Made by a program: the position numbers and the translations under genes. Below the pieces are notes generated by a model. The model had not been told where the DNA came from, did no database searches, and was given only the letters and a program-made list of their open reading frames with translations. A DNA stretch of 38,548 nucleotides, from NCBI GenBank assembly GCA_016842085.1, contig JAEVEX010000071.1, positions 1-38,548 of the forward strand, written 5' to 3'. The DNA is from Candidatus Thermoflexus tengchongensis (lineage in GTDB: Bacteria; Chloroflexota; Anaerolineae; Thermoflexales; Thermoflexaceae). Positions 12,454 to 18,465 of the stretch are shown one piece after another (position 1 is the first letter of the stretch; each line of letters starts with the position of its first letter).

Positions 12454-12583
12454 GGCTTCGCTGCAGCGATTCTCACGGGTGAGCGCACCCCCGTTCGAGG
12501 CAGAGTTGTTTCCAAATCCATGGGGTCCAAAAGGGCCTCAGGGGATGGTCAAATCAAATCCCAAGGCAGGAAAGGAGGAGATC

Positions 12584-16338: not shown

Positions 16339-17340
16339 ATGACGCTGCTGGATCAAATCCGGATCGCAACCCCTCACCGACTGGAGACCCGATCGCTCAT
16401 CCTGCTGAGCCTGGCGCTTGTCCTCTTCCTTCTCCCGCTTCTGCAGGTAGTCTCCGATGGCTACAACTATGTGCTGCACGTCCTGATGGTGATCTTCATG
16501 TATATCGCCATGGCCTCCGGATGGAACATCATCGGTGGCTACGCGGGATACACCTCGCTGGGGCATCCGGTCTTCTTTGCTCTTGGGGCCTATTTCTCGG
16601 GGGTGCTGCTGGTTTATCGAGGATGGTCCCCTTTCTGGACAGCGCCGATCGCCGGGCTGGTGGCCACGCTGTTCGGATTTGCCTTCGGTCTGGTCGCCCT
16701 GCGCACCCGCGGGCCAGCCTTCGTGATCTCAACCATCGCCCTGCTTCTCCTCGCCCAGTTGATCCTGGATAACTGGGAATGGGTGGGGGGGTCCAACGGA
16801 CTGAGCCTTCCGATGATCGGCTGGCCCTATCGGTTCTACAAGATCCCCTTTTACTACGGAATGCTGCTCACCGCTTTGCTTGCGATATGGGTTTCCTATC
16901 GGATCCGGCATTCCAAGCTCGGCCTGTTCCTTCGGGCAATTGCGATGGATGAGACGAAGGCCGAAGTCGCCGGCATCGATACTCGTATGTGTAAGGTGAT
17001 CGCCTTCGCGATCAGTGCTTTCTTCGCCGGCGTTTGCGGTGCGTTGTGGGGTTATCAGCAAACCTATCTGCGCCCCACCATCTTTCTGACCATCGGTGCT
17101 GCCGCAGATCTGGTGCTGATCAACCTGGTGGGAGGGCGCGGGACCGTGGCCGGCCCCGTGCTGGGAGCGGCGTTACGGGTTGGTCTGGATGAGCTGGTGG
17201 TGAACCAGGTTGGCTCGACCGAGCTGAACATCACGGTGACCGGTTTGCTGATGGTCCTGATCGTGCTCTTCTTCCCCGGCGGGATCGTTGGGGCACTGCG
17301 GGAACGCCGACACCTGCCCCGCCTGCTGGACTGGGATTAG
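16339..17340 (+). CDS. livM: Liv-type ABC transporter permease (LivM-like)
   Basis: The second permease subunit, 333 residues. The N-terminus is hydrophilic for about 25 residues, then ten or so membrane segments follow. Conserved parts are IAMASGWNIIGGYAGYTSLGHPVFFALGAY, split over two helices, and the coupling loop LFLRAIAMDETKAEVAGIDT. The start is one base after the livH stop. With the lipoprotein, two ATPases and LivH it completes a five-gene importer. The following gene begins 73 bases downstream. Confidence 0.92.
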   Translation: MTLLDQIRIATPHRLETRSLILLSLALVLFLLPLLQVVSDGYNYVLHVLMVIFMYIAMASGWNIIGGYAGYTSLGHPVFFALGAYFSGVLLVYRGWSPFWTAPIAGLVATLFGFAFGLVALRTRGPAFVISTIALLLLAQLILDNWEWVGGSNGLSLPMIGWPYRFYKIPFYYGMLLTALLAIWVSYRIRHSKLGLFLRAIAMDETKAEVAGIDTRMCKVIAFAISAFFAGVCGALWGYQQTYLRPTIFLTIGAAADLVLINLVGGRGTVAGPVLGAALRVGLDELVVNQVGSTELNITVTGLLMVLIVLFFPGGIVGALRERRHLPRLLDWD

Positions 17341-17413
17341 AAGCCATCATAAAGGTCAAGCGGTCGTCGAATACCCTGGAACACAAGGCTCAGCAGATCC
17401 CCAGGAGGTTCGG

Positions 17414-17899
17414 ATGCTTGTGTGCGAAGTGGAAGCTCGCGTTCTGGAAGGGATGCGCAAGCTGGCGATCGCTCGGATGATCCGTGGGGATCAGGTCTCC
17501 GAAGTATTCACCCTGGTCAGCGATGAGGGAGCCCATCTGAATGGGGAAGGAAGCGCTCCGACCCCTCTGATGTATTTCGTGGCTGGCGTGGCGTTCTGAG
17601 TGCTCACTCAACTCGCGCGGTGCGCGAGGGACCTTAAGGTTCCGCTTGAGGAAGCGCGGGCCAGGGTGGTGGGACGATTCCAGCGAACAGGCTCTGTGCT
17701 TCAGGGCACAGCACGAGGAGAATGTCTGGGGTTCGAAATCATCCTGAGTCTGCGGACCGATGCGGACATCGAGGTGGTGCGCCGGGTTTTGATGCTGGCT
17801 CATGCCACCTGTTATACCGAAAACGCTCTGCGCAGCGAGATCCCTCTCGTTTTGCGGCATGAAGTGAATGGGGTCCCGCTGGAGCTCATGGCTCCGTAG
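17414..17899 (+). CDS. OsmC-family protein, predicted selenoprotein (UGA at codon 62)
   Basis: The frame from ATG 17414 (AGGAGG at 17403-17408) to TAG 17897-17899 is 161 residues with one internal TGA at 17597-17599. Before it the protein reads GEGSAPTPLMYFVAGVAF; after it, VLTQLARCARDLKVPLEEAR. Both are clear OsmC-family sequence, and the TGA replaces precisely the first redox cysteine of the family (usual form PLxYxLAGxxxC). The second redox cysteine is present as Cys133 (AHATCYTENAL). OsmC/Ohr proteins are cytoplasmic thiol peroxidases or related redox enzymes, and OsmC-like selenoproteins are known from bacterial genome surveys. A SECIS-like hairpin follows the TGA. The alternative is a one-base nonsense mutation (TGC or TGT to TGA) or an assembly error. 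Confidence 0.75.
17612..17628 (+). promoter_or_regulatory. Predicted bacterial SECIS hairpin
   Basis: CTCGCGC (17612-17618), loop GGT (17619-17621) and GCGCGAG (17622-17628) form a perfect 7-bp GC-rich stem. The loop begins 19 bases after the UGA, inside the window expected for bacterial SECIS elements, and a G in the first loop positions followed by U is the feature SelB-type recognition uses. A second small dyad overlaps the UGA itself (TGAGT at 17597-17601 with ACTCA at 17606-17610). The hairpin lies within the coding frame, as bacterial SECIS elements do. Confidence 0.65.
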
Positions 17900-18039
17900 C
17901 TCCCAGCAGTCTCTGTCCACATGATAAGGGGCGCCGCCAAAGGTGGCCCCCGATCCCCTCCTCCAGATGGAAGCCAGGCTGAATAAGTTCGATCCGGATT
18001 CATTGCCGGAACACCGGGGGATTCATCGAAGAGGATGCT

Positions 18040-18465
18040 ATGGGGATCCTGTGGGCTGTGCTATCGGCGATCGGTTTCGCGCTCTTCCAGGTCGTGAACC
18101 GCCGTGCAGGCCTGGGCATCGATGTCCTTCGAGCGACCTTCATGCTCATCCTGATCAGTTCTCTGGCGCTGACCGGGATCGCCTGGGCCGCGGAGGGATC
18201 GGCCCCATTGCAGCAGCTGTCCGCTCCTGCGTTCCTGGCCTTCGCCCTCTCCGGGGTATTCCATTATGTGCTGGGCTGGACCATGCTGGGGCTCAGCCAG
18301 CGAGCTGTGGGCGCGGCCCGAGCAGGGGCCCTGGTGGGGATCAGCCCTTTGTTTGCCACCGCTATCGCATGGATTGTCCTGGGGGAGCATATCTCCTCCA
18401 CCGCTTTGCTGGGAATCGCCTTCATCGTTCTCGGCGTTTACCTTGTTTCCACAGAATCCCGCTGA
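18040..18465 (+). CDS. EamA-type transporter, N-terminal half
   Basis: A membrane protein of 141 residues with about five hydrophobic helices and one EamA (drug/metabolite transporter) domain, from MGILWAVLSAIGFALFQVVNR to LLGIAFIVLGVYLVSTESR. Usual EamA proteins have two such domains in about 300 residues. The other half is encoded 13 bases downstream in a different frame. The two could be a natural heterodimer, as in small DMT pairs, or one gene broken by a frameshift. The start is 140 bases after the OsmC gene. Confidence 0.75.
   Translation: MGILWAVLSAIGFALFQVVNRRAGLGIDVLRATFMLILISSLALTGIAWAAEGSAPLQQLSAPAFLAFALSGVFHYVLGWTMLGLSQRAVGAARAGALVGISPLFATAIAWIVLGEHISSTALLGIAFIVLGVYLVSTESR

What the first reader, a model, noticed from the sequence alone, without database searches (positions are those of the whole stretch)
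17414..17899. OsmC-family gene with in-frame UGA at the redox cysteine: a likely selenoprotein
Both sides of the TGA at 17597-17599 are well-conserved OsmC sequence in the same frame, and TGA replaces the first redox cysteine (codon 62); the second redox cysteine, Cys133, is intact. A random nonsense mutation has no reason to fall on this one codon. If translated, the protein has a Sec-Cys pair and should be a faster peroxidase. Standard annotation would give two unrelated small proteins. OsmC-like selenoproteins have been reported in bacterial surveys, but I know of none in this gene context.
Basis: partly seen in the sequence, partly recalled or inferred. Interest (0 to 1): 0.9.

Follow-up and report, generated by a model that had tools for sequence, protein, structure and literature searches.

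The report
OsmC-like selenoprotein gene in Thermoflexus
A bacterium of the genus Thermoflexus carries a gene for a small OsmC-type redox protein whose apparent stop codon very probably encodes selenocysteine at the active site; the protein family is already known as a selenoprotein family, so this is a sound new example rather than a new kind of thing.

Summary
The finding is correct. Window 17414-17899 is one 161-residue OsmC-like gene with an in-frame TGA at codon 62, the column where Cys-type homologues have the first redox cysteine; Cys133 is intact. The genome encodes the full selenocysteine machinery: tRNA-Sec (TCA anticodon), SelA, SelB, and a SelD that itself has a TGA. The same TGA occurs in Thermoflexus HRbin22, in Armatimonadota, and in 26 of 27 strong matches in 400 phylum genomes; the 27th has TGC. 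A hairpin with a G-containing loop lies 19-20 nt after the UGA. Over 31 distinct family members its stem keeps 5.3 of 6 pairs, against 3.2 under synonymous shuffling (z = 12); the close Cys homologue lacks it. Both halves are under purifying selection. The family is known: NCBIfam NF041052 'OsmC-related (seleno)protein'; 'OsmC-like protein, UxxT' of the 2005 Sargasso Sea survey. New details: the gene groups with Armatimonadota homologues and sits between a branched-chain amino-acid ABC permease and an EamA gene that adjoin directly in a congener, suggesting lateral gain. Peroxidase activity is inferred only; a Glu of the Cys-type homologues near the active site is missing. New member of a known kind.

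The parts
17414..17899 (+). OsmC-like selenoprotein gene (161 aa, Sec62, Cys133, motif U-V-L-T = UxxT)
17597..17599 (+). in-frame UGA, selenocysteine codon 62
   Evidence: same column is TGA in 34 family rows and Cys (TGC/TGT) in 5
17612..17630 (+). SECIS-type hairpin: CUCGCGC-GGU-GCGCGAG (17612-17628) starting 12 nt after the UGA, loop 19 nt after it; the family-consensus register of the stem reaches 17630
17403..17408 (+). AGGAGG ribosome-binding site, 5 nt before the ATG
   Evidence: read from the sequence
17810..17812 (+). Cys133 codon (TGT), putative resolving cysteine, invariant in alignment A1
16339..17340 (+). upstream neighbour: branched-chain amino-acid ABC permease (BPD_transp_2), end of a liv-type operon starting at 12479
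18040..18465 (+). downstream neighbour: EamA-family membrane protein

Best explanation
This is a genuine selenoprotein gene of the known OsmC-related (seleno)protein family. SelB carrying Sec-tRNA-Sec binds the hairpin just downstream of UGA62 in the mRNA, and the ribosome inserts selenocysteine instead of terminating. The product folds as an OsmC/Ohr-type protein in which Sec62 is the attacking selenolate and Cys133 resolves the selenenic acid as a selenenylsulfide, to be reduced by a cellular thiol. Shown here by computation: gene, machinery, conserved UGA, conserved hairpin, OsmC fold. Inferred: insertion in the cell, and the Sec-Cys redox cycle. Substrate unknown: organic peroxide by analogy only.
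For: NF041052 match 146 bits across the TGA. Own genome has tRNA-Sec with TCA anticodon (80.8 bits), SelB (302 bits, 328 with its C-terminal piece, cut-off 242), SelA (564 bits), SelD (378 bits, itself with in-frame TGA at CAGU). Same TGA in HRbin22 and in Armatimonadota, whose two named genomes also have tRNA-Sec. In 400 phylum genomes 26 of 27 over-cut-off matches hold exactly one TGA and none a TAA or TAG; all that were aligned have it at the same column, and L087 has TGC. Stem: 5.32 of 6 pairs per sequence against 3.20 +/- 0.18 under synonymous shuffling, 0 of 2000 shuffles reaching it; register 48 pairs 89% while the other registers scanned (42-54) pair 29-64%; compensatory pair types CG/TA/GC at several pairs; loop holds a G in nearly all. 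Only 1 difference in the 51 nt after the TGA between window and HRbin22, against 23/183 before and 28/243 after. dN/dS 0.09 and 0.29. AlphaFold2 model pLDDT 88.9, pTM 0.84, best PDB match OsmC-like 3cje.
Against: No protein or reporter evidence. tRNA-Sec was not found in the HRbin22 bin, which is 90% complete and has SelA, nor in G189, nor in the bin of L027. The single-sequence folding z-score is weak (-1.6), and the hairpin P for the window alone is 0.014; the strength comes from the family. The Glu found at alignment column 53 in most of the Cys-type homologues is Met/Thr/Ser in the Sec rows, so the peroxidase role is uncertain.
Confidence: 0.95

Rival explanations
1. The TGA is a nonsense mutation or sequencing error in a Cys-type OsmC pseudogene.
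For: Close Cys homologues exist (L087 has TGC at this column).
Against: Same TGA in independent assemblies across two phyla and never TAA/TAG; purifying selection on both sides; conserved hairpin.
Confidence: 0.01
2. UGA is read as another residue genome-wide (a recoded UGA), not as selenocysteine.
For: One UGA is open in this gene; SelD also has one.
Against: SelA, SelB, SelD and tRNA-Sec are all present; UGA sits exactly on a redox Cys column with a SECIS-type hairpin; neighbouring genes in the window end normally in the standard code.
Confidence: 0.01
3. UGA is decoded as Sec, but the protein is not a peroxidase: it is a thiol/selenol redox or scavenging protein of the OsmC fold with another substrate, perhaps linked to the neighbouring amino-acid transporter or amidohydrolase.
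For: Column-53 Glu is absent in the Sec rows; the best structural match 3cje likewise reads PPPLALF there and is structurally annotated only; gene lies at the end of a liv-type operon.
Against: Homologues in Armatimonadota lie in unrelated neighbourhoods (DUF3179 and MoeA/MobB; LigD-type primase and an AhpC-TSA/DsbD-like gene), so no constant partner is seen.
Confidence: 0.4

Closest known systems
NCBIfam NF041052, OsmC-related (seleno)protein
   Same: Full-length match, 146 bits against a cut-off of 95; Sec at the same place
   Different: Nothing that sets it apart
OsmC-like selenoprotein, UxxT motif, Sargasso Sea and GOS surveys (PMC1088965, PMC2398784; listed in reviews PMC9312934 and PMC13188914)
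   Same: OsmC fold, UxxT motif (here U-V-L-T), bacterial SECIS after the UGA
   Different: Those were marine metagenome reads; this is a Thermoflexus genome with its machinery. Their sequences were not compared here residue by residue
Ohr/OsmC organic hydroperoxide reductases
   Same: Fold (3eer, 1n2f, 6ebg among structural matches), two redox positions 62 and 133
   Different: First redox Cys replaced by Sec; Ohr model far below its cut-off (26 of 240 bits); Glu near the active site not kept

Membership tests
Bacterial selenoprotein | in-frame UGA aligned with Cys in homologues, conserved on both sides | tested here: met
Bacterial selenoprotein | SECIS hairpin immediately downstream with a G in a small apical loop | tested here: met
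Bacterial selenoprotein | tRNA-Sec, SelA, SelB, SelD in the genome | tested here: met
Bacterial selenoprotein | selenocysteine present in the protein | not testable with these tools
   needs mass spectrometry or 75Se labelling
NF041052 OsmC-related (seleno)protein | score over the curated cut-off | tested here: met
   146.1 against 95 bits
OsmC fold | OsmC domain and fold | tested here: met
   Pfam 42.4 against 27.5 bits; model matches OsmC/Ohr structures
Ohr/OsmC peroxidase | peroxidatic and resolving residues | tested here: met
   columns 62 (U/C) and 133 (C) invariant in A1
Ohr/OsmC peroxidase | active-site Glu near the first Cys | tested here: inconclusive
   column 53 is Met/Thr/Ser in Sec rows and Glu in most Cys rows; not checked against a solved Ohr active site
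Ohr/OsmC peroxidase | peroxide reduction | not testable with these tools
   needs an assay

The most novel reading that the evidence does not exclude
A selenocysteine OsmC gene was acquired laterally by a sublineage of Thermoflexus from an Armatimonadota-like donor, landed at the end of a branched-chain amino-acid transporter operon, and does a redox job other than classical hydroperoxide reduction.
Probability: 0.25. Interest if true: 0.4.

Novelty: new member of a known kind. Interest (0 to 1): 0.3.

Why it matters
It is a clear case of a gene that standard-code ORF calling splits in two (17288-17599 and 17600-17899 here). It shows that the little-studied OsmC-like selenoprotein family, first known from a few marine reads, is spread through Chloroflexota and some Armatimonadota, mostly in the Sec form, with one close Cys homologue lacking the hairpin as a natural comparison. 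Its biochemistry has, as far as the papers searched show, not been studied.

Tried and rejected
Nonsense mutation, sequencing error and decaying frame: rejected. Folding the single sequence as proof of a SECIS: too weak alone (z -1.6), so a family-wide synonymous-codon control was used. Other 1-TGA matches of low score (G286, L047) were checked: L047 is a Cys-type OsmC with TGC-type active site and the TGA outside the core; not counted. A profile search of viral contigs could not be run (alignment too diverse). Searching outward from the Armatimonadota genomes was not possible by locus id. A paper search for Thermoflexus with selenocysteine gave only a Chloroflexi single-cell paper, not read further.

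Full report
Observation. The reading frame given is exact. From ATG 17414 to TAG 17899 there is a single frame broken only by TGA at 17597-17599 (codon 62), with AGGAGG five bases before the ATG. The read-through protein matches Pfam OsmC (42 bits) and NCBIfam NF041052 'OsmC-related (seleno)protein' (146 bits, cut-off 95) in one alignment that spans the TGA. Cys133 is intact and invariant in the alignment.

Organism. The window lies in a 3.9 Mb assembly (95% complete). Its close congener with the same gene is HRbin22, 'Candidatus Thermoflexus japonica', so the window is from a Thermoflexus, Chloroflexota.

Machinery. The same assembly has a tRNA-Sec with anticodon TCA, SelB, SelA and SelD. SelD has its own in-frame TGA within CAGU-ASK near the start of the matched region, i.e. 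it is itself probably a selenoprotein. Six of the eight other genomes of the genus searched have a strong tRNA-Sec match; G001 and HRbin22 do not, though both have SelA, and both are incomplete.

Conservation of the TGA. In HRbin22 the protein is 89% identical with the same TGA; three loci from two Armatimonadota bins and one unassigned bin are 65-70% identical with the same TGA where the codon is covered. In 396 genomes of the class the five best NF041052 matches have one TGA each. In 400 genomes of the phylum 27 matches pass the cut-off: 26 have one TGA, none has TAA or TAG, and one (L087) has none. Aligned, 34 rows have TGA at the codon-62 column, and five without it have TGC or TGT there, including the close homologue L087.

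Hairpin. CUCGCGC-GGU-GCGCGAG begins 12 nt after the UGA, its loop 19 nt after it. Bacterial SECIS elements lie just downstream of the UGA with a small apical loop holding a conserved G (PMC1088965). Because the stem overlaps conserved codons, the control was synonymous recoding: alone the window gives P = 0.014. Over 31 distinct Sec-type sequences the stem in one common register keeps 5.32 of 6 pairs against 3.20 (sd 0.18) for recoded versions, with pairs exchanged between CG, GC, TA and AT types; the other registers scanned pair 29-64% against 89%. Three rows that pair poorly in that register (L084, L085, L097) appear by eye to have a stem shifted by one base or placed a little further on. 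The five Cys-type rows have 0-3 of 6 pairs. Between window and HRbin22 the 51 bases after the UGA differ at one site, against about 12% on either side.

Selection. dN/dS between window and HRbin22 is 0.09 before and 0.29 after the UGA. The numbers are small, but neither half is drifting.

Structure. An AlphaFold2 model of the read-through protein (Cys in place of Sec; 13 sequences) has pLDDT 88.9 and pTM 0.84. Best PDB matches are OsmC-like 3cje and Ohr proteins; profile search agrees.

Mechanism. Most likely Sec62 attacks an electrophilic oxygen (or sulfur) substrate, and Cys133 resolves it. This follows from established Ohr/OsmC chemistry and is not shown here. A Glu that most Cys-type rows have at column 53 is Met/Thr/Ser in the Sec rows, so a substrate other than organic hydroperoxides is quite possible.

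Context and origin. The gene follows a liv-type operon (binding protein 12479, two ATPases, two permeases to 17340) and precedes an EamA gene; HRbin22 shows the same arrangement. Another Thermoflexus, G005, has the same permease and EamA genes with only about 17 bases between the aligned blocks and no OsmC gene; six other congeners lack a close match to both the permease and the OsmC gene. In the tree, window and HRbin22 group inside the Armatimonadota sequences (support 100/94 with L026, 99/91 with L025 added), apart from other Chloroflexota Sec forms. Together this suggests lateral gain from an Armatimonadota-like source, although only two Armatimonadota sequences are in the tree and loss in G005 is not excluded.

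Known or new. OsmC-like selenoproteins with motif UxxT were described from the Sargasso Sea in 2005 (PMC1088965), again in 2008 (PMC2398784), and are listed in recent reviews (PMC9312934, PMC13188914). The window's motif U-V-L-T fits. NCBI has a model for the family. The finding is therefore right, and it is a new member of a known kind.

Noticed in passing
L020 (own genome G000:C90:11133-12068): SelD of this genome has an in-frame TGA at the CAGU-ASK motif: a second probable selenoprotein.
   Followed up: partly
window 17338-18040 against L115 (G005): In congener G005 the permease and EamA genes adjoin directly, without the OsmC gene: an empty-site arrangement.
   Followed up: yes
L039 (G349): Tandem OsmC fusion; the first domain has Ser and the second Cys at the column of Sec62.
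   Followed up: no
G001, G008 (Thermoflexus), G189: SelA present but no clear tRNA-Sec in the draft assemblies; G008 and G189 carry the Sec OsmC gene. Probably assembly gaps.
   Followed up: partly
L026:6517-7278 (-): In one Armatimonadota genome the OsmC-Sec gene lies beside an AhpC-TSA/DsbD_N-like gene, which would fit a redox role.
   Followed up: no
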